DNA of 41,324 nt from an uncultured Eubacteriales bacterium (GTDB taxonomy: Bacteria > Bacillota > Clostridia > Oscillospirales > Acutalibacteraceae), in assembly GCA_900315785.1 (NCBI GenBank), contig ONAL01000012.1:1-41324 (forward strand). The letters are read 5' to 3'. The notes beneath the pieces were generated by a model, which did not search any database, was not told where the DNA came from, and worked only from the letters and a program-made list of their open reading frames with translations. Made by a program: the position numbers and the translations under genes. Position 1 is the stretch's first letter. Each line of letters opens with the position of its first letter. Positions 1,992 through 17,976 of this stretch are shown here, piece after piece.

Positions 1992-2555
1992 TTGGGCAAA
2001 ACCAATTACAGCGCGCTTAATGACTCAACGCTCGCGGCACTCTCAAAGAAAGGCGACGAAGCGGCGTTCGAGGAAATCACGCTCCGATATATCAAGCTGA
2101 TTTACTCGATAGCGTCGAATTACACGAGTGACGGCTATGATATCCAGGACTTTGCGCAGGAAGGGCTGCTTGCGTTTCTTATCGCCTGCAAGACCTATGA
2201 GGAGGGCTCCGCGTCCTTCAAAACCTACGCCGTAAAATGCGCCAAGAACCGTTTCAGCGATATCGTTAAAAAGGAAAATCAGAAAAGCAGCGTGCCCAAG
2301 GACAGGCTTGTTCCGATGGACAATCTCTCCGAATCTGAGGTTGAGAGCGAAAATCTCGAGGACTATGTGCTCGAGAAGGAATACCTCAAAACAATGCTCG
2401 AGCATATTCAAAGACAGCTCAGCACGGATGAGAGAAAGATTTTCTCAATGTACGCGCGCGGATATTCTTATAAAGAAATCGCCGAGGAACTCGGCACCAC
2501 ACCCAAGAATGTGGACAACATTCTCCAGAAAATTAAACGTAAACTCAGAAAATAA
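1992..2555 (+). CDS. Sigma-70 family RNA polymerase sigma factor, SigH-like
   Basis: 187 residues with sigma region 2 (about 22-95; core-binding stretch DIQDFAQEGLLAF and DNA-melting stretch TYEEGSASFKTYAVKCAKNR) and region 4 (about 135-187; helix-turn-helix YSYKEIAEELGTTPKNVDNILQ). There is no region 1 or 3. This layout and wording match the SigH/Spo0H and SigI-like group, though it is shorter than Bacillus SigH (about 218). The start is TTG at 1992, preceded by AGGTGGTG. The next gene, a secreted LRR-dockerin protein, starts 15 bp downstream with no terminator between, so the two are probably co-transcribed. No anti-sigma gene is adjacent. It could be the general transition-phase SigH or a specialised sigma factor. 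Confidence 0.88.
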   Translation: MGKTNYSALNDSTLAALSKKGDEAAFEEITLRYIKLIYSIASNYTSDGYDIQDFAQEGLLAFLIACKTYEEGSASFKTYAVKCAKNRFSDIVKKENQKSSVPKDRLVPMDNLSESEVESENLEDYVLEKEYLKTMLEHIQRQLSTDERKIFSMYARGYSYKEIAEELGTTPKNVDNILQKIKRKLRK

Positions 2556-2570
2556 ACGGAGGTTATCGTT

Positions 2571-3575
2571 ATGAAAAGAATAATCTCAATAACTGCGGCG
2601 TTATGTCTGCTTGTGCTTTCGTGCGTGAATTGCTTCGCCACGACATACGTGTACTTCGGCGACTTCAAGCTCGCTATCAACGGCGACGGCTATCTGCTCG
2701 GCGGATATCGCGGCACGGAAGCAACTGTCACTCCGCCGACAACGGCATATGGTAAACCCGTTACGGGAATAGCAGAGGACTTTATCGAAAACTGCGAGAC
2801 TGAGCCTTCGTCAATAGTAATTCCGGATGGCTATGAGAGTATCGGAAACTTCGCGTTTTACAACTGCAGCAGTCTTGAAAGCGTAGCTTTTCCTTCGACG
2901 CTCACATTTATCGGAACCATGGCATTCAGCGGCTGTACAACGCTTTCGTCAGCAGACCTGAGCTCTTCTCAGATTAAGACCATTCCTTACGGATGCTTCT
3001 CGGGCTGCACAGAGCTTTCTTCTGTTTCGCTCCCCGACGGTCTTGAGAAAATCGGTGACTACGCGTTCTCGCAGAGCGGTGTTTCCGCAATCGTCTTGCC
3101 TCAAAGCGTAACGGAAATCGGAAGTCTCGCTTTCAACGAGTGTAAGAGTCTTTCGAGCGTAACATTGCCTGACGGCATTCTTAAGATAGGCGAGAAGGCT
3201 TTCTACGGCGAGAATCAGCTTACAACGATTTCGCTTCCCGCGTCTCTCAAAAGCATAGGCGCCTACGCTTTTTATCCCAGAGGACTAGAGGGCGGACAGC
3301 TCACTGTCGAGTGTCAGAGCGGCACCTACGCGGCTGATTATGCTTACAGCAATTTCCTTAATATGAACGCGAAGTCAAACATAGGCGACGCTGACGGCAA
3401 CGGAAAGGTGAATATCAACGACGTCACCTTTGTCCAGCTTTATCTGCTCGGGTTAGCAGACTTCACCTACTACGGTCAGGAGAACAACGCTGACGCGAAC
3501 CGCGACAACGTTGTAAACCTCAGAGACGCTACCACAATTCAGCTGAAGCTTGCAAACAGGATAGATTTTGAATAA
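2571..3575 (+). CDS. Secreted leucine-rich-repeat protein with C-terminal dockerin
   Basis: 334 residues. The N-terminus is a signal peptide (MKRIISITAALCLLVLSC..., cleavage near FA/TT at about 24). Residues about 60-265 hold BspA/TpLRR-type leucine-rich repeats of about 23 residues (pattern IGxxAFxxCxxLxSVxLPxxLxxIG). Residues about 273-334 form a type I dockerin with two Ca-binding segments (DADGNGKVNINDV and DANRDNVVNLRDAT). Dockerins bind cohesins on scaffoldins, so the protein should be displayed on a cellulosome/amylosome-like complex. The LRR domain probably mediates protein or glycan binding; no catalytic domain is seen. RBS ACGGAGG lies 9 nt before the ATG. It is followed by a strong terminator and is probably in operon with the sigma factor. 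Confidence 0.92.
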   Translation: MKRIISITAALCLLVLSCVNCFATTYVYFGDFKLAINGDGYLLGGYRGTEATVTPPTTAYGKPVTGIAEDFIENCETEPSSIVIPDGYESIGNFAFYNCSSLESVAFPSTLTFIGTMAFSGCTTLSSADLSSSQIKTIPYGCFSGCTELSSVSLPDGLEKIGDYAFSQSGVSAIVLPQSVTEIGSLAFNECKSLSSVTLPDGILKIGEKAFYGENQLTTISLPASLKSIGAYAFYPRGLEGGQLTVECQSGTYAADYAYSNFLNMNAKSNIGDADGNGKVNINDVTFVQLYLLGLADFTYYGQENNADANRDNVVNLRDATTIQLKLANRIDFE

Positions 3576-3583
3576 CATCAACT

Positions 3584-3612
3584 AAAAGCAGCCTTTTCAG
3601 GTTGCTTTTTTT
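3584..3612 (+). terminator. Intrinsic terminator after the LRR-dockerin gene
   Basis: AAAAGCAGCC (3584-3593) pairs with GGTTGCTTTT (3600-3609, one G-T pair), followed by a T run. The T-tract overlaps the -35 element of the next promoter. Confidence 0.8.
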
Positions 3613-3630
3613 GTCGCAGTGATATATAAT
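3602..3630 (+). promoter_or_regulatory. Promoter of the PqqD-peptidase-ABC cassette
   Basis: TTGCTT (3602-3607), 17 bp, TATAAT (3625-3630). The -35 lies inside the 3' arm and T run of the preceding terminator, which is unusually compact. Confidence 0.5.
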
Positions 3631-3665
3631 GTATCTGTACTTTATAATGGAGGTATTTTGGGATT

Positions 3666-3929
3666 ATGAAAGCTAAATCCGACTTTTTACTCAGGAAAAT
3701 TTCCGATTCATATGTAATTGTCCCTGTAGGCTCGGCTGTAGTCGATTTCAGCGGACTTGTAAACGTCAACGAGAGCGGCGCTATGCTCTTTGAAATGCTC
3801 CAGAAGGGCTGCGAGGAAAGCGACCTCGTTAAAAAGCTGTTAGAGGAATATGACGTCGAGCGCGAGGTTGCCGAGGCGGACGTCAAGAAATTTATCGGCA
3901 AGGTTAAGGACGCCGGTATACTTGAATAA
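3666..3929 (+). CDS. PqqD-like peptide chaperone (RiPP recognition element fold)
   Basis: 87 residues matching the PqqD family: a short N-terminal beta segment (residues 14-29, SYVIVPVGSAVVDFSG), the typical NESGAMLFEML helix (about 38-48) and the helical C-terminus with EVAEADVKKFIGKVKDAGILE-like wording (L and E end). In PQQ, lasso peptide and other RiPP pathways PqqD/RRE domains bind the leader of a precursor peptide and hand it to a modifying enzyme. No radical SAM or other maturase is in this cluster. GGAGG at 3649-3653 lies 12 nt before the ATG. It is the first gene of a four-gene operon. The family call is strong; the substrate is unknown. Confidence 0.87.
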   Translation: MKAKSDFLLRKISDSYVIVPVGSAVVDFSGLVNVNESGAMLFEMLQKGCEESDLVKKLLEEYDVEREVAEADVKKFIGKVKDAGILE

Positions 3930-4389
3930 GCAGCTTGATTTAAAGGAACTGATTCCGATAATGAAGGAACAGCTCGACAGAGGAAAGCCCGTCTCCTTTG
4001 TGCCGAACGGCAGGAGCATGGAGCCTATGCTCGACGGCGGCAAGGATATGATTATCCTGTCAAAGCCAAAGGGCAGACTTCACCTTTTCGACGTTGCGCT
4101 GTACTATCGCCGTGAAACCGACCGTTATATCGTCCACAGGGTTGTGGGCTTTAAGAAGGACGGCTCCTATGTTATGCTCGGCGACAATAATATCGAACGC
4201 GAATACGGTATCCGCGATGAGGATATCATCGGCGTTGTAACGAACTATTACCACAAGGGCAGTATGCGCTCGGTCACCTCAATGCGTTACCGCTTTTACT
4301 GCAATTACAGGTATTACACAAGACCGTTAAGACTCGTTTACCGCAGAACGCGCGCGGGTCTTTCAAAAAGGATAAATAAGGACGATTAG
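3922..4389 (+). CDS. S26-type signal peptidase-like protein with Ser/His dyad
   Basis: 155 residues. PNGRSMEPML near the N-terminus carries the candidate catalytic Ser32. The later YIVHRVVG box has His72 where bacterial type I signal peptidases have Lys, as in the ER/SipW type. GDNN, the family's fourth box, follows. An N-terminal membrane anchor, normally present in signal peptidase I, is not visible; the C-terminus is strongly basic and aromatic. The chosen start is TTG at 3922, overlapping the PqqD gene by 8 nt with TAAGGA upstream; an ATG at 3961 is the alternative. Placed between a peptide chaperone and an ABC exporter, it is probably a leader-processing protease. S24 (LexA-like) peptidases share this fold and are the alternative label. 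Confidence 0.82.
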   Translation: MNKQLDLKELIPIMKEQLDRGKPVSFVPNGRSMEPMLDGGKDMIILSKPKGRLHLFDVALYYRRETDRYIVHRVVGFKKDGSYVMLGDNNIEREYGIRDEDIIGVVTNYYHKGSMRSVTSMRYRFYCNYRYYTRPLRLVYRRTRAGLSKRINKDD

Positions 4390-4390
4390 A

Positions 4391-6124
4391 TTGGAAGATA
4401 ATAAGAGATTTTCAAAATCCTATCTTAAGGAAATAAGAAACTTTGATAAGAAAACCACTGCATGGATTTTGCGTAATACAAAAGCCCAGCTTGGTTATGT
4501 CGTTCTGCTCGGAATTCTCTCCGCGTTAATCGCTTATGCGGGCGTTGCGATGGCTCAGCTCGCGCGCGGAATTGTTGATTCCGCGGCGTACGACAGGGAT
4601 ATGAACAAGGTTATCATCTACGCGGTGGCTCTGCTTGCGCTCACCATGACGCAGATTGGAATGGGTGTTTTCAATAACGTAATGTCATTCAACGCGAACG
4701 CAAAGCTTGAGATTGCGCTCAAGTCTAAGCTGTTCGAAACGATGATAAAGAAGGACTACGCAAAGGTCACATCGTTCCACACAGGCGAGCTGATGAACCG
4801 ACTGACGAGTGATATAGGCGTAATCACGGGAGCGATAGTAAACATCATTCCGAATGTGATTTACTTCCTTGTAAAGCTTGTCGGTATTCTGATAATTCTG
4901 TTCTCGATTGACTGGCGCTTTGCGATTGTGTTCGTAATCGGCGGCGCGATTGTTATGACCTTCCTGCTGCTCTTCAAGGGTAAGCTCAAGAATATGCACA
5001 AGAGGGCACAGGAGAGCGACGGCAAGACACGCAGCTTTATGCAGGAATCACTTGCAAGCCTGCTTGTTATCAAGGTTTTCAACCGTTACAAGAGAATTAC
5101 AGACGAGAGCGACAAGCTCCAGATGAATAATTTCAGAATCAGAAGAAAGCGCAATTACATCTCTATCGGCGCGTCGCTCGGCTTTTCGGTTGTGTTCACG
5201 CTCGGCTATATGTACGGACTTGTATGGGGTTCGTTTATGATTCTTTCGGGCGCGATTACCTACGGTATTCTGACCGAAATTCTGGCGCTTGTTTCCCAGA
5301 TTCAGACGCCCGTTCAGGGACTTACATCGGTAGTTCCGCAGTATTATCAGGCGCTCGCTTCCGCCGAGAGAATTATCGAGATTGAGGAATTCCCCGACGA
5401 GCACGAATACGATGACAACGAAAAAATCGACAATGAAAAGCTCTACTCTGAGCTCAGCTCCGTAGAGTTCGAGAATATCACCTTTGCCTATGACCGCGAT
5501 ACCGTTCTCGAGGACACAAGCCTCAGTATCAAAAAGGGCGATTTCGTCGTTATTACGGGTATTTCGGGAATCGGCAAGAGCACGCTGACAAAGCTTCTGC
5601 TCGACGTTTTCCCTGTAAAGAAGGGTGAAATCTACTTCAAGCTCAACGACGGCGGCAAGGTCTACGCCGACCGCAACACTCGCTGTATGTTTGCGTATGT
5701 TCCTCAGGGCAACTTCCTGCTTTCGGGCACAATCAGAGAGAACATCTCCTTTGTACGACCCGACGCTTCCGACGAAGAGATTATGGCGGCGGCAAAGATT
5801 GCCTGCGCAGACTTTATCGAGGAGCTGCCCGAGGGTCTCAACACCGTTCTCGGCGAAAAGGGAATGGGTCTTTCCGAGGGTCAGGTTCAGCGTGTGGCGA
5901 TTGCCAGAGCAATTCTCTGCAACGCTCCGATGATTATCCTCGACGAGGCGACCTCTGCGCTCGACGAAGCCACTGAAATCAGACTTTTGAGAAATATCGA
6001 GAACCTCAAGAACAAAACCTGTATACTTATTTCCCACAAAAAAGCGGCGAACGAGGTCTGCAACAAGGAAGTAAGAATTGAGGATAAAAAGATTATCGTA
6101 AAGGAAATCCGACATGGCGATTAA
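4391..6124 (+). CDS. ABC exporter, fused membrane and ATPase domains
   Basis: 577 residues. The N-terminal half (about 30-320) has six hydrophobic segments typical of a type I exporter. The ATPase domain has Walker A GISGIGKST (390-398), signature LSEGQ (494-498; Gly to Glu at position 3 of LSGGQ), Walker B MIILDE (514-519) and the H-loop LISHK (His549). There is no N-terminal C39 peptidase, so any leader must be cut elsewhere; the preceding S26-like protein is the obvious candidate. The start is TTG at 4391, one nt after the upstream stop, with AAGGA 7-8 nt before it. It likely exports a peptide or lipid as a homodimer. The substrate is inferred only from the neighbours. Confidence 0.92.
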   Translation: MEDNKRFSKSYLKEIRNFDKKTTAWILRNTKAQLGYVVLLGILSALIAYAGVAMAQLARGIVDSAAYDRDMNKVIIYAVALLALTMTQIGMGVFNNVMSFNANAKLEIALKSKLFETMIKKDYAKVTSFHTGELMNRLTSDIGVITGAIVNIIPNVIYFLVKLVGILIILFSIDWRFAIVFVIGGAIVMTFLLLFKGKLKNMHKRAQESDGKTRSFMQESLASLLVIKVFNRYKRITDESDKLQMNNFRIRRKRNYISIGASLGFSVVFTLGYMYGLVWGSFMILSGAITYGILTEILALVSQIQTPVQGLTSVVPQYYQALASAERIIEIEEFPDEHEYDDNEKIDNEKLYSELSSVEFENITFAYDRDTVLEDTSLSIKKGDFVVITGISGIGKSTLTKLLLDVFPVKKGEIYFKLNDGGKVYADRNTRCMFAYVPQGNFLLSGTIRENISFVRPDASDEEIMAAAKIACADFIEELPEGLNTVLGEKGMGLSEGQVQRVAIARAILCNAPMIILDEATSALDEATEIRLLRNIENLKNKTCILISHKKAANEVCNKEVRIEDKKIIVKEIRHGD

Positions 6125-7259
6125 GCTCTCCGAGAGTAAAAAACAGCTTTACATAAACTATATAAAGCTCATAGCCTCGGTCATCAATTCCGAGAAACCG
6201 CCAAAGCTCCCCGCCGATTTTGACTGGGAGCTTGTTTGCCGTAACTCACAGCGAAACGGTGTGGCGAACATCATCGCCTACACCTTCGACAAGGTGAACG
6301 TAAAACCGCCAAAGACGGTCTATAACGTTATGGAAAACGAGCGCCGTTTCGAAATACTCAAGGAAACGTCTCAGATTTTCGATATTGAAAAGGTTATTCA
6401 AAAGTTTGAGGAAAACAAAATCCGCAACATTCCCCTGAAGGGCTACTTTATGAAGCATTACTATCCTCAGACAGACTTCCGCTCAATGAATGATGTAGAC
6501 ATCTTCTGCGAGCGTAAGATGTACAAGAAAATCCGTGCCTGTTTTGAGGAATGCGGCTTTACCGAGAATAAAATGCGCTCCGCAAATGAGCTTGCGTTCA
6601 CGAAGGACTTGATTTTTGTCGAGGTGCATTTCGTCATTGACCGTGACCAGAAGGGCTATTATGACAAAATCTGGGATATGGTAAAGCCGAGGGACGACTA
6701 CAACTGTTCCTATGAGTTCTCTCCCGAGGATTTCTACGTCTATATGCTGTACCACGCGTCAAAGCACATCAAAAACGGCGGTATCGGTATTCGAATGATA
6801 CTCGATTTCTATGTGTATAACAGGGCTTTTCCGAACCTCGACTACAGCTATATCAAGGAACAGCTGACAGAGCTCGGTCTCTTGAAAACACACGAGAAAA
6901 TCACCTCAACCGCAGAGGATTGGTTCTCGGGGAAGCTTGAGGATTTTGACAGCTTCGGCGAGTTTGTTCTTTACTGCTCGACCTTCGGCGACAGCGAATT
7001 CCACGAAGCACTCACGCCTGTCGGCGACTCCTCGGCTTCGGGAGTTCTCAGGCATATTTTCAGACCTTATTCTCAGATGAAAAATATCTATTTTTATCTG
7101 CATAAATTTCCTTTTCTTCTGCCGTTTTCGTGGGTTCAGTTCTGGTTCTCGCGTGTGTTCGTGAGCAAGGACATAAACCGCTCCTACGGTACGGAAAAGA
7201 AAATCAGCCCCGAGGTAAGACAGAGGGCTGACGAAATAATAAATGAACTTGAATTGTAA
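6114..7259 (+). CDS. NTP_transf_5-like nucleotidyltransferase-fold protein
   Basis: 381 residues. The diagnostic stretch lies at about 107-130: PLKG, then YP (117-118), Arg123 and the acidic pair Asp127-Val-Asp129. This matches the uncharacterised nucleotidyltransferase family (PF14907 type), in which two Asp residues bind metal. Members often occur in lasso-peptide and other exported-peptide clusters. The start ATG overlaps the ABC gene by 11 nt, so the genes are translationally coupled. It could add a nucleotide or related group to the peptide or to a partner protein; the activity is not demonstrated for this branch. It is the last gene of the cassette, with a hairpin after it. Confidence 0.82.
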   Translation: MAIKLSESKKQLYINYIKLIASVINSEKPPKLPADFDWELVCRNSQRNGVANIIAYTFDKVNVKPPKTVYNVMENERRFEILKETSQIFDIEKVIQKFEENKIRNIPLKGYFMKHYYPQTDFRSMNDVDIFCERKMYKKIRACFEECGFTENKMRSANELAFTKDLIFVEVHFVIDRDQKGYYDKIWDMVKPRDDYNCSYEFSPEDFYVYMLYHASKHIKNGGIGIRMILDFYVYNRAFPNLDYSYIKEQLTELGLLKTHEKITSTAEDWFSGKLEDFDSFGEFVLYCSTFGDSEFHEALTPVGDSSASGVLRHIFRPYSQMKNIYFYLHKFPFLLPFSWVQFWFSRVFVSKDINRSYGTEKKISPEVRQRADEIINELEL

Positions 7260-8106: not shown

Positions 8107-9642
8107 TTACAAAAGGTCAATCTGAATCGCGGTAGCGTCGTTGATATTCACAACGCCGTCTCCGTTGACATCCGCAATCGCCTTTTGCTTGTCTGTGAAT
8201 TTTACGTCAAATTTAGCAATGTACTGCTGAATAAGCGTAACGTCGTTGATATCCTCAACTCCGTCGAGGTTCACGTCGCCGCGTCCTGTCGCAATCGCCT
8301 TGATTACGAGAGTACCGCCGATTTCATCGTTAAGTGTATCTGTGTAATAATCACGCACATCAACAAGTCCCGCGCTACTCTCGATAAACGACTTGCCGCT
8401 CTTGCATGTGTCTATGAAAATCATATTTTTTGTGTTCTTGTTTCTCAGCCACTCGCTGACGCCGATTCCGTTCTTTGCATCCGTATTTGAGCTGTCAATC
8501 TCAACCGCAATAGCCGCCTTTACGGGCGCTACGGTAAGCTTGTCGAAGTCGTGGCAGATGTAGCCCGAATAGTCAACTTTGCCGCTGCCGAGGCTCTGCC
8601 ACTGTTCGCGGTCGGTGACGGGCTTTTCATCTTCGCCTACGGGTACAAAGAATACTTCATAATCCGCGCCGACACAAGTGCTCTCGAACACAACCTTGTC
8701 GAGAATATCGCCTTTCTCCGAGAAGTCAAAAACATTGAAATATGTTACCTTATCCTCATCGATATAGTTGAACTCGTAGGTAGCGCCGTATTCCTCGTTC
8801 TGGTATACGCTGTCGGTTTTCTCGATTTTATGCAGGTCAAGCACCGTGAAGCTCGGAGCAAGAAAATCGTCGTTGAACAGGTAGAAATCCTCATAAGAAA
8901 TCCACAGGTAGCCGCCGATGGAGTTGTTGTTGCCCCAGCTGTTCTTGCAAAGCCACGCTCCGTCGTTTTCGGGCTGATACGTGCCGTCAAACTTATCCTT
9001 GCTGTAGTTGTCGTCCCAGCCGACTACCGATACGGAATGACCCGAAATCGAAGAGCCGATATCAGGGAGAAAGTAAGAGGTTCTGTCAAGGCTTGAGGCT
9101 TCCGACTTGTAGTTGAGGTTTGCCGTAACAGCGCCGCTCTCCATAATGTCGCGCTTTATTTGTTCTGTGTCGCTTCGATTTATGTATCTGAGCTTTGTCG
9201 TGCCGTAACGGAGCGAGTTGTCAAAAAGCGCTCTCGGACCGTTCCAGCTTATGAAGTTTCCGATTGGAATATAGGTGTAGCCCGATTCCTTGGAGTTGCG
9301 CTGCCAGCCTTCGCCGTCCTCGTGGATTGTGCCCCAGTTGTCGAGCGCGTCTACGCTCAGATAACCGTAGAATGAACGGTTCTTGATGATGAATGTCTCG
9401 AACGAAGCGAGCGACGAATACACCCAGCACAAATCTCCCGTCTGAGTTTTGACCGCGGTTGTGTAGCCGAGGTCTGCCGAACTGTAGTAAGTGGGGAGAG
9501 AATCGTTCTCGGGTTCTGTCTGCGGCTCTGTCGCTTCGTTTTCGGACGCGGAAAACAGGCTCACGTCGGCAGCGTTTGCCGAGAAAGCCGAGAAGCTGAA
9601 TATTAAGATTATTGATGTCAGAATTAAAGCTATCTTTTTCAT
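8107..9642 (-). CDS. Secreted papain-like cysteine protease with C-terminal dockerin
   Basis: 511 residues from the chosen ATG. A signal peptide (MKKIALILTSIILIF..., cut near ANA/A) is followed by a C1A peptidase domain: catalytic Cys72 in TGDLCWVYSS, His202 in GHSVSVVGWDD and Asn234 in CKNSWG. Residues about 290-440 form a beta-rich lectin-like region often seen after such peptidases. Residues about 454-511 are a type I dockerin (DVNLDGVEDINDV and DVNGDGVVNINDAT), so the protease should be docked on the cell-surface complex. ATGs at 9648, 9651 and 9669 are possible, but none has a clear RBS. A -10 box ends exactly 7 nt before the ATG at 9642, so the mRNA may be leaderless. Confidence 0.9.
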   Translation of the reverse strand: MKKIALILTSIILIFSFSAFSANAADVSLFSASENEATEPQTEPENDSLPTYYSSADLGYTTAVKTQTGDLCWVYSSLASFETFIIKNRSFYGYLSVDALDNWGTIHEDGEGWQRNSKESGYTYIPIGNFISWNGPRALFDNSLRYGTTKLRYINRSDTEQIKRDIMESGAVTANLNYKSEASSLDRTSYFLPDIGSSISGHSVSVVGWDDNYSKDKFDGTYQPENDGAWLCKNSWGNNNSIGGYLWISYEDFYLFNDDFLAPSFTVLDLHKIEKTDSVYQNEEYGATYEFNYIDEDKVTYFNVFDFSEKGDILDKVVFESTCVGADYEVFFVPVGEDEKPVTDREQWQSLGSGKVDYSGYICHDFDKLTVAPVKAAIAVEIDSSNTDAKNGIGVSEWLRNKNTKNMIFIDTCKSGKSFIESSAGLVDVRDYYTDTLNDEIGGTLVIKAIATGRGDVNLDGVEDINDVTLIQQYIAKFDVKFTDKQKAIADVNGDGVVNINDATAIQIDLL

Positions 9643-9649
9643 ACCCATC

Positions 9650-9678
9650 ATTATAACAATTTTGAACAATAATGTAAA
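9650..9678 (-). promoter_or_regulatory. Promoter of the dockerin protease, possibly leaderless
   Basis: On the minus strand TTTACA (9673-9678), 17 bp, TATAAT (9650-9655). Seven bases separate the -10 from the ATG at 9642, so the expected transcription start coincides with the start codon. Confidence 0.55.
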
Positions 9679-16431: not shown

Positions 16432-17976
16432 ATGAAAACAAGGGCTTTAAAGTTTCTCAGCTTAATGCTCGTAATGGCGGTTATCACAACCTGTTGTGTA
16501 ATCGCAGGGGCGTCGGCCTCTGCCGTTACAGGTAAGGTTTACTTTGATAACTCCGTAACTCACTTTGACACACCTTACTGCTATATGTGGGGCGGTTCGT
16601 CAGGCGCAAACAAAGATTGGCCGGGCATTGCCATGACAAAGGTCGACGGCGATATCTGGTCCTATGATGTGAACGGTGATTATACCTCAATCATCTTTAA
16701 CAAGGGTAGCAACGAGTACCAGTCAAACGACCTCTCATTTACCGGAGTAGGCAAGGTTGCAAAGCCCAACGGCTCAGGCAACAAGTTTGACGTTTCCTGG
16801 AGCAATTATCAGGGCGGAGACGACCCCACAAATCCGACAAACCCGACAAATCCCACTAACCCCACCAATCCTTCGGGCGGCGCGGGCTCGGTTTTCTGTC
16901 AGAACGACAAGAACTGGACAAGTGTTTACTGCTATATGTGGAACTCGGAAAGTGACAAGAATACAAATTGGCCCGGCGAAAAAATGACAGACACGGGCGA
17001 CGGCGTTTGGGAATATGACTATCCCAAGAGCTTTGCTAACGTAATCTTCAATCCGGGCGGCGACGACGGTAAGACAAGTGATATGACTTTACCCGGTGAC
17101 AACTATATCTATAACAACTCCACAGGCAAATGGGAGCCGTATTCAACTTCTCCCGTGAAGATTACTTCCTTAACAGCTAACTTAGAGGAAACTACAATCT
17201 ACACAGGCACAAGCGTTACATTTACAACCGTAGCCAAGACTACTGCGGGCGGAAACCTCACCTACAAGTACAGCGCAAACGGCGCAACTCTTTCCGAGAG
17301 TTCATCCGCTTCCTGCGTATGGGTTCCCAACACTGCGGGCACATACAAAATCACTGTTGACGTAACCGACTCATCGGGCAACACCAATTCACGTTCCCTG
17401 ACTTATACGGTTGAGAACGCGGGCTCGCTCGAGGGCGCGTACATCAGAGGCTTTGCCAACTCCCTCAAGACTGTTTCACAGATTAAGAAGGGCACAGCGA
17501 TTACCTTCACAACCGACGCTATCGGCGGCAACACAGGTAACGGACTTCTGTTCTACAAGATTGTAGTAAAGGCTCCCGACAATTCCCAGAATATTGCTTA
17601 CTACACCAAGAACAACATTTATAACTACACTCCCACACAGCTTGGTACATATACTTTCACGGCGTATGTTCAGAACTCTTACAACACAACAGTAAGCAGA
17701 ACCTACACCTACACAAGCGTTGATACTATCACAGAGAACACTAACCCGACAAATCCGACCACACCGACTAACCCGACAACTCCCACAACTCCGGGTATCC
17801 TCTACGGTGACGCGGACGACAGCGGCGCTGTAAACATCAACGACGTTACAACAATCCAGATGCACCTTGCTCACTACAACAACGCGATTAACCTCGGGAA
17901 AGCGGACTACGACCGCAACGGTAGTGTTACAATTCAGGACGCTAACGAAATCCAGAAGTTCCTTCTTTTCAAATAA
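16432..17976 (+). CDS. Starch-binding protein: two CBM26-like modules, Ig-like region, dockerin
   Basis: 514 residues, no catalytic domain seen. After a signal peptide (about 1-30) come two CBM26-like modules (about 33-128 and 150-242). Each has the paired aromatic pattern CYMW...WPG, W-Y-D and IIFN/VIFN. They are separated by a linker of repeated NPT triplets. Residues about 245-430 contain one or two Ig/PKD-like beta domains, then a second Pro/Thr linker and a type I dockerin (about 455-514; DADDSGAVNINDV and DYDRNGSVTIQDA). It should hold starch on the scaffoldin complex, like the non-catalytic starch-adherence proteins of R. bromii amylosomes. RBS AAGGAGG. The amylase follows after 14 bp and is probably in the same operon. 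Confidence 0.93.
   Translation: MKTRALKFLSLMLVMAVITTCCVIAGASASAVTGKVYFDNSVTHFDTPYCYMWGGSSGANKDWPGIAMTKVDGDIWSYDVNGDYTSIIFNKGSNEYQSNDLSFTGVGKVAKPNGSGNKFDVSWSNYQGGDDPTNPTNPTNPTNPTNPSGGAGSVFCQNDKNWTSVYCYMWNSESDKNTNWPGEKMTDTGDGVWEYDYPKSFANVIFNPGGDDGKTSDMTLPGDNYIYNNSTGKWEPYSTSPVKITSLTANLEETTIYTGTSVTFTTVAKTTAGGNLTYKYSANGATLSESSSASCVWVPNTAGTYKITVDVTDSSGNTNSRSLTYTVENAGSLEGAYIRGFANSLKTVSQIKKGTAITFTTDAIGGNTGNGLLFYKIVVKAPDNSQNIAYYTKNNIYNYTPTQLGTYTFTAYVQNSYNTTVSRTYTYTSVDTITENTNPTNPTTPTNPTTPTTPGILYGDADDSGAVNINDVTTIQMHLAHYNNAINLGKADYDRNGSVTIQDANEIQKFLLFK

What the first reader, a model, noticed from the sequence alone, without database searches (positions are those of the whole stretch)
3602..7259. Peptide-type cassette without a precursor or radical SAM: PqqD, Ser/His S26 peptidase, ABC exporter, NTP_transf_5
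Four genes are packed with overlaps or 1-nt gaps (8-nt overlap, 1 nt, 11-nt overlap) behind one promoter. The parts are those of a RiPP maturation and export line: a leader-binding chaperone, a leader-cleaving protease (Ser32, His72), an exporter lacking its own C39 protease, and a nucleotidyltransferase-fold protein (Asp127/Asp129). No maturase or precursor is visible, so the substrate must come from elsewhere or the modification is nucleotidyl transfer. The LRR-dockerin gene just upstream is separated by a terminator but is a possible client.
Basis: partly seen in the sequence, partly recalled or inferred. Interest (0 to 1): 0.78.

Follow-up and report, generated by a model that had tools for sequence, protein, structure and literature searches.

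The report
Peptide-maturation cassette tied to dockerin proteins
A gut Ruminococcus carries a small gene line that looks built to trim, tag and export short peptides encoded elsewhere in its genome, and in its close relatives those peptide genes often sit beside secreted proteins of the kind that plug into the cell's external enzyme scaffold.

Summary
The four genes are real and as described. They match the RRE, SipW-like peptidase, MsbA-like exporter and NTP transferase of linear polyphosphorylated peptides (LPPs), a RiPP family published in May 2026 (PMC13381572). The window lacks the family's kinase and precursor, but the same genome has candidates for both: one HprK-like kinase in a second cassette (contig C20) and nine short YxxP peptides at other loci, each with a Ser near the expected place. 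Three of the nine are followed directly by a dockerin gene. In the genus sample, 18 of 18 cassettes with exporter plus NTP transferase (window included) have a dockerin gene directly upstream; over all types it is 34 of 78, against 8 of 434 background pairs. The window's LRR-dockerin is most similar to other cassette-linked ones. I read this as a dispersed, dockerin-associated LPP-like system, a new variant of a known kind. Against it: kinase and precursor are outside the cluster, the leader lacks HQxIxFET, the RRE profile scores closer to lasso B1 proteins than to LppB, and 5 of 17 full cassettes in a wider named set have no dockerin. Chemistry, product and function are untested.

The parts
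3666..3929 (+). PqqD-family RRE (LppB-like), 87 aa
   Evidence: Pfam PF05402 E 4e-16; AF2 pLDDT 93, best PDB matches TbiB1 and TfuB1 with leader peptide; N35, Y62, D72, F76 correspond to LppB N33, Y60, D70, F74 (alignment; residues named in PMC13381572 section 8)
3922..4389 (+). S26/SipW-like Ser-His peptidase (LppS-like), 155 aa, no Pfam match
   Evidence: TIGR02228 E 6.4e-10, below its cut-off; S32, H72, D88 invariant in 18 sequences
4391..6124 (+). MsbA-like ABC exporter without C39 peptidase domain (LppD-like), 577 aa
   Evidence: PF00664 and PF00005; MsbA-type models lead the NCBIfam list, below their cut-offs
6114..7259 (+). NTP_transf_5 protein (LppN-like), 381 aa
   Evidence: PF14907 E 8.6e-41; D127 and D129 invariant in 21; AF2 pLDDT 85.7, best PDB match ANT(2'')-Ia E 3.4e-4
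2571..3575 (+). LRR_5-dockerin protein with signal-peptide-like start, 334 aa; conserved neighbour of the cassette in the genus
   Evidence: LRR_5 E 4.6e-55, Dockerin_1 E 1.1e-6; its 8 best matches among 78 dockerin proteins, self excluded, are cassette-linked; dockerin directly upstream in 18 of 18 ABC+NTP5 cassettes of the genus sample
3584..3609 (+). Intrinsic-terminator-like hairpin between dockerin gene and pqqD
   Evidence: 11-bp stem, -13.3 kcal/mol, z -4.23, runs into a T-run; not listed by the terminator scan

Best explanation
The window holds the B-S-D-N part of a dispersed LPP-like RiPP pathway. PqqD captures YxxP leader peptides made from at least nine loci elsewhere in the genome. 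The HprK-like kinase of the second cassette (contig C20) adds phosphate to the Ser near the leader-core junction. The SipW-like peptidase removes the leader next to that Ser, the NTP-transferase-fold enzyme adds a further group to the phospho-Ser, and the ABC protein exports a short, mostly acidic linear peptide. Several of the peptides are encoded between a giant, apparently secreted protein and a dockerin protein, so they most likely act at the cell surface together with dockerin proteins held on cohesin scaffolds. Shown by sequence: gene set, groove residues, catalytic residues, precursor family, one kinase gene, dockerin linkage in the genus, synteny. Inferred: every enzymatic step in this organism, the cleavage site, kinase action in trans, and the surface role.
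For: Same gene set as lppB-S-D-N (PMC13381572 sections 6 and 7). RRE model: best PDB hits are lasso B1-leader complexes, and the YxxP-contact residues N, Y, D, F of LppB are kept. Nine YxxP peptides in this genome, each with Ser at Y+19 or Y+20 (read by eye from those calls). In 65 peptides aligned on Y, P at Y+3 in 64 and Ser at Y+19 or Y+20 in 57. dN below dS in 3 of 6 peptide pairs tested (0.141/0.652, 0.151/1.083, 0.499/0.748); dS undefined in the other 3. One HprK-like kinase match in the genome, on C20. Dockerin directly upstream: 34 of 78 cassettes versus 8 of 434 background gene pairs, Fisher p 5.6e-24; 18 of 18 with ABC and NTP5, window included. 31 of 65 peptides have a dockerin as next gene versus 21 of 513 other genes. 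Five of the genome's 17 dockerin hits lie beside a precursor or cassette, and cohesin-like domains are present, 7 hits, 4 over cut-off. Orthologous site, with C1-dockerin, gpr and spoIIP neighbours and mostly MscS, shared with 7 fetched genus regions (L054, L059, L063, L068, L076 without the MscS match, L083, L087).
Against: No kinase or precursor in the window. The RRE profile scores lower on LppB (9x8z, 24.3 bits) than on three lasso B1 proteins (33-34 bits), and 9x8z is not among the 50 listed fold matches. The precursors lack the published HQxIxFET stretch; the Ser lies 1-2 residues further from Y than in LppA, and 8 of 65 have no Ser at Y+19/20. Precursors were assigned to the pathway by motif alone, and the second cassette's RRE could serve some or all of them. 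44 of 78 cassettes have no dockerin next to them; the groEL-linked pairs have none. Seven of the 18 fuller cassettes, the window included, have no peptide within 4 kb upstream. In the named set, 5 of 17 ABC+NTP5 cassettes have no dockerin upstream (L147, L151, L153, L156, L162), one is at a contig end, and at least 9 of the 11 with dockerin are contigs already in the genus sample. So the link may be limited to this genus. No product has been seen, and LppN had no detectable activity in the published host.
Confidence: 0.72

Rival explanations
1. A lasso-peptide system that lost or moved its cyclase and B2 protease; the enzymes now act as remnants or serve a lasso pathway elsewhere in the genome.
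For: RRE profile nearer to lasso B1 proteins than to LppB; HprK and NTP transferase are known lasso tailoring enzymes (PMC9266682 passages); an asparagine-synthase-like gene lies on C19 about 5.6 kb from two precursors.
Against: No B2-type transglutaminase over the cut-off in the genome; the single weak hit (E 0.007, one stop) falls inside the coordinates of a 666-aa ORF. The genome's five Asn-synthase hits lie on C27, C28, C19, C13 and C30, its RRE hits on C17, C20 and C23. All four window ORFs are open. Of the nine own precursors only one would start a core with Gly right after the Ser (by eye). Flanks of the relatives' cassettes were not scanned for cyclases.
Confidence: 0.12
2. The LRR-dockerin protein itself is the substrate: the cassette modifies or trims it before or during export, and the small peptides are unrelated.
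For: Directly upstream in 18 of 18 ABC+NTP5 cassettes of the genus sample and in some loci overlapping the next gene; the best matches of the window protein are cassette-linked.
Against: It begins with a signal-peptide-like stretch (by eye), expected to send it through Sec rather than a peptide ABC exporter; no YxxP leader at its N terminus (a YGKP starts at residue 60). A separate YxxP peptide family with the right leader, dN below dS where computable, lies next to many of these genes.
Confidence: 0.08
3. The enzymes do process the peptides, but the dockerin linkage has no functional meaning: surface-protein genes and RiPP genes share variable surface loci.
For: Gene content upstream of the cassette varies between relatives at one orthologous site; 5 of 17 full cassettes in the named set lack a dockerin; LPP clusters in Bacilli sit in polysaccharide loci (PMC13381572 sections 6 and 12).
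Against: The same order (large protein, peptide, dockerin) recurs at separate places, also within one genome; dockerin and next cassette gene overlap or nearly so in several loci; 18 of 18 in the genus sample.
Confidence: 0.2

Closest known systems
Linear polyphosphorylated peptides (LPP), lppA-K-B-S-D-N of Paenibacillus alginolyticus (PMC13381572; sections 6-9, 11, 12, 16 read, not the supplements)
   Same: Discrete RRE, SipW-like leader peptidase with Ser/His, HprK-like kinase (here in another cassette), MsbA-like exporter, NTP transferase, no cyclase; YxxP leaders and a Ser near the junction.
   Different: Kinase and precursors not in this cluster; precursors dispersed and numerous; leader lacks HQxIxFET; mostly short acidic tails; neighbouring dockerin and giant proteins. 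The paper's main text has no occurrence of 'dockerin' or 'Ruminococc'.
Paeninodin/pseudomycoidin lasso peptides with HprK and NTP transferase (passages of the review PMC9266682; primary papers not read)
   Same: RRE, kinase, NTP transferase and exporter; YxxP/WxxP leader logic.
   Different: No B2 protease over cut-off in this genome, and no Asn synthase on the contigs with RREs.
Amylosome LRR-dockerin proteins Doc1 and Doc2 of Ruminococcus bromii (PMC9112005, section 4 with Table 1 read, other passages)
   Same: Signal peptide-LRR-dockerin proteins; there found in EDTA washes of cells, i.e. with the cell-surface complex.
   Different: No peptide-maturation genes are mentioned in what I read; orthology was not tested.
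HPr-rel-A system PqqD chaperone (TIGR04353)
   Same: PqqD-type chaperone with an HprK relative (system make-up recalled).
   Different: Window PqqD scores 21.2 bits against a cut-off of 35.

Membership tests
LPP | Discrete PqqD/RRE beside a SipW-like peptidase | tested here: met
   (peptidase model below its cut-off)
LPP | MsbA-like exporter and NTP transferase in the cluster | tested here: met
LPP | HprK-like kinase in the cluster | tested here: not met
   Absent from the cassette; one match elsewhere, on C20
LPP | Precursor in or beside the cluster | tested here: not met
   None in the window; nine elsewhere in the genome
LPP | Leader consensus YxxPxVLxHQxIxFETxxS | tested here: inconclusive
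   Y, P and a spaced Ser kept in most; HQ and FET not
LPP | RRE in the LPP clade | tested here: inconclusive
   Profile scores 24.3 bits for LppB, 33-34 for three lasso B1s; no tree built
LPP | Polyphosphorylated linear product | not testable with these tools
   Needs mass spectrometry
Lasso peptide cluster | B2 transglutaminase-type protease | tested here: not met
   No hit over cut-off in the genome, which is 91.5% complete
Lasso peptide cluster | Asn-synthase-like cyclase with the RRE | tested here: not met
   RRE hits on C17, C20, C23; Asn-synthase hits on C27, C28, C19, C13, C30
Radical-SAM RiPP (ranthipeptide/SCIFF) | Radical SAM maturase with the RRE | tested here: not met
   None among the eight window proteins scanned around the cassette; the genome's SCIFF maturase on C23 carries its own PqqD-like domain
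HPr-rel-A system | PqqD over the TIGR04353 cut-off | tested here: not met
   21.2 versus 35 bits

The most novel reading that the evidence does not exclude
A RiPP wired to a cellulosome/amylosome-type scaffold: each phospho-peptide is made for, and carried or sensed by, its own LRR-dockerin partner, so that peptide products are displayed on cohesin scaffolds of the cell surface. One shared maturation line serves many precursor-dockerin pairs in trans.
Probability: 0.35. Interest if true: 0.85.

Novelty: new variant of a known kind. Interest (0 to 1): 0.62.

Why it matters
LPP function is unknown; the founding paper says so and works with Bacilli. Here LPP-like precursors are common in a genus of gut Ruminococcus MAGs: the peptide profile hits 83 of 100 genomes, and a PqqD-domain hit occurs in 99 of 100, although that count includes domains inside radical SAM maturases. 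Many of the precursors are physically linked to dockerin proteins. That gives a concrete place and partner to test and links RiPP biology to scaffold-based polysaccharide degradation. It also warns that precursor searches limited to a few kb around the enzymes would miss all nine candidates of this genome.

Tried and rejected
Tried: NCBIfam on five peptides, no match. Pfam on eight giant proteins: InlB-type repeats in three (one of them below its cut-off), an X25 pullulanase-type domain in one, nothing in four. A search for small conserved ORFs near 13 groEL-linked PqqD-S26 pairs gave only groES among the top 12 (groES and groEL named by recall of sequence). NTP_transf_5 profile against PDB sequences: only lincosamide transferases at E 0.031, so a fold but no substrate. 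Aligning giant-protein C termini gave a poor alignment, so I claim no shared domain. Literature: 'dockerin' with 'lasso peptide' gave one paper, whose passages show no link between the two; the 15 listed of 55 papers for dockerin/RiPP/PqqD had zero dockerin mentions. I therefore say only that these searches showed me no report of the linkage.

Biases: the peptide profile A1 was seeded with 19 peptides, mostly from cassette regions, so the 31 of 65 is not fully independent. Regions were fetched mainly in PqqD score order, 80 of more than 150 listed matches. Of 82 regions (80 plus L007 plus the window), four had no cassette by my definition and were dropped (L016, L027, L061, L079). Species are related, so the Fisher p overstates independence. 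Gene calls are my own longest-ORF calls, and many large ORFs are cut by region ends. The background for the downstream comparison (21 of 513) uses a wider distance limit than the upstream one (8 of 434).
Full report
What is there. The four ORFs lie as described, tightly packed on the + strand: PqqD, an S26/SipW-like protein, an ABC exporter and NTP_transf_5. Ser32/His72 and Asp127/Asp129 are invariant among the aligned homologues (18 and 21 sequences). A terminator-like hairpin lies between the upstream LRR-dockerin gene and pqqD (not listed by the scan). The window is contig C17 of a 1.67-Mb genome, 91.5% complete. Of 25 named loci with a related NTP_transf_5, all are MAG contigs, 11 labelled Ruminococcus and 4 Oscillospiraceae, many from ruminant gut sites by their titles.

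What it resembles. The set RRE + SipW-like peptidase + HprK-like kinase + MsbA-like transporter + NTP transferase defines the LPP family (PMC13381572; sections 6-9, 11, 12 and 16 read). In that work the kinase polyphosphorylates Ser3 of the core, the peptidase needs the RRE to cleave, and the NTP transferase had no visible effect. The window has B, S, D and N. The RRE model (pLDDT 93) matches lasso RRE-leader complexes best, and the residues N33, Y60, D70 and F74 of LppB that hold the YxxP motif are present as N35, Y62, D72 and F76 (alignment; residues). The same N and D are found in lasso TfuB1 in that alignment, so they mark a YxxP-binding type, not LPP alone. Against a close LPP tie, the profile scores LppB lowest of the four solved relatives, and LppB's entry is not among the 50 fold matches listed.

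The missing parts. The kinase: one HprK-like match in the genome, in a second cassette on C20 with the order dockerin-K-PqqD-S26, its genes overlapping. The precursors: regular-expression scans of the 82 genus regions turned up short ORFs of the form MKKxYxxPE[FL]E...[DE]-hydrophobic-[LI]-x-x-S with variable, mostly acidic tails. A profile of 19 of them hits 83 of 100 genus genomes at E 0.01 and 29 of 200 family genomes, in 22 of 135 genera, at E 0.001. In this genome nine were read: C30 (two), C22 (two), C6, C20, C14 and C19 (two). The weakest had E 0.095 and were accepted on motif. In 65 peptides aligned on Y, Ser stands at Y+19 or Y+20 in 57, against Y+18 in LppA by the paper's numbering. 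Of 59 tails counted, 58 have a net negative charge; D 15%, G 15%, E 10%, K+R 2.5%. Of six peptide pairs tested, three gave finite values with dN below dS and three had undefined dS.

The dockerin link. Of 78 cassettes in the genus sample, 34 have a dockerin gene directly upstream on the same strand within 250 nt, against 8 of 434 background neighbour pairs. By type: ABC+NTP5 18 of 18, window included; HprK without ABC 11 of 15; HprK+ABC without NTP5 2 of 10; PqqD-S26 only 3 of 22; S26+NTP5 0 of 9; ABC only 0 of 4. A YxxP peptide lies within 4 kb upstream in 11 of the 18, and in those 11 it stands between a large ORF and a dockerin gene. Of 65 distinct peptides, 31 have a dockerin as the next gene and 50 have a same-strand ORF of at least 300 aa within 400 nt before them (tally). 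Three of eight giant proteins scanned carry InlB-type repeats, one of these below the cut-off. In the window's own genome 5 of 17 dockerin hits are beside a precursor (C30, C22, C6) or a cassette (C17, C20), and cohesin-like domains exist. The window's LRR-dockerin matches cassette-linked dockerin proteins best. Against generality: in the named set, 11 of 17 ABC+NTP5 cassettes have a dockerin directly upstream, 5 do not (L147, L151, L153, L156, L162) and one is at a contig end.

Synteny. At the orthologous site, recognised by C1-dockerin, gpr and spoIIP genes and mostly an MscS gene, relatives L059, L076 and L083 carry large protein + peptide + dockerin before the cassette; L068 and L087 keep dockerin-PqqD-S26; L054 and L063 have PqqD-S26-ABC without dockerin. 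The window thus looks like a version of this locus without the local precursor module. R. bromii LRR-dockerin proteins were found in EDTA washes of cells (PMC9112005, section 4), which makes a surface site for such proteins plausible.

Mechanism and doubts. I favour trans-acting LPP-like maturation of dispersed precursors followed by export to a dockerin-decorated surface. Steps after gene identity are inferred. The main doubts are which precursors belong to this cassette rather than the C20 one, the undefined NTP transferase reaction (structural neighbours are aminoglycoside and lincosamide nucleotidyltransferases; PsmN is reported to add hexose), and the functional meaning of the dockerin link. 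A lasso pathway in this genome is unlikely: no B2 over cut-off, and Asn-synthase hits lie on other contigs than the RRE hits.

Verdict. It is a new variant of a known kind, with an unproven but testable tie to dockerin proteins.

Noticed in passing
L029, L040, L042, L046, L047, L057, L060, L062, L064, L072, L078, L081, L084: A PqqD-S26 pair (some with NTP_transf_5) sits directly behind what looks like groES-groEL (named by recall) in 13 fetched genus regions, with no dockerin directly upstream and no YxxP peptide found nearby; reason unknown.
   Followed up: partly
L010-L015, L017: Seven HprK-PqqD-ABC-NTP5 cassettes (L010, L011, L012, L013, L014, L015, L017) have no S26 match in the block although six of the seven have a YxxP peptide and all have an upstream dockerin; the leader protease may come from elsewhere.
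   Followed up: no
L007 7143-10496 (contig C20): Second cassette of this genome: Ser-rich lipoprotein-like gene (by eye), short dockerin, HprK, PqqD, S26, then an NAD(P)H-hydrate epimerase gene 4 nt on.
   Followed up: partly
L085, L092 4119-4271, L126, L128: A second precursor type (e.g. DVLC[AGS]S or DVLMTS) whose tail ends in hydrophobic/aromatic residues; the one in L085 lies upstream of a lipoprotein-dockerin-K-B-S cassette.
   Followed up: no
window 1992-2555: A sigma-70-family factor gene ends 15 nt before the LRR-dockerin gene; no match to it was found in the fetched loci at E 1e-10.
   Followed up: partly
window 8107-9669 and 16432-17976: Two more dockerin proteins in the window; the first is a papain-like peptidase with lectin-like domain, present at this site in seven genus regions.
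   Followed up: partly
L147 and L162: MAG contigs labelled Alistipes and Ruminococcus carry large protein, YxxP peptide, small gene, HprK, PqqD, S26, ABC, NTP_transf_5 in one row without dockerin, the most complete LPP-like clusters seen here.
   Followed up: no
L177 2830-3292 and 8202-9734 (contig C19): Two tandem YxxP peptides and, about 5 kb on, an orphan asparagine-synthase-like gene; one peptide could by eye start a Gly core.
   Followed up: partly
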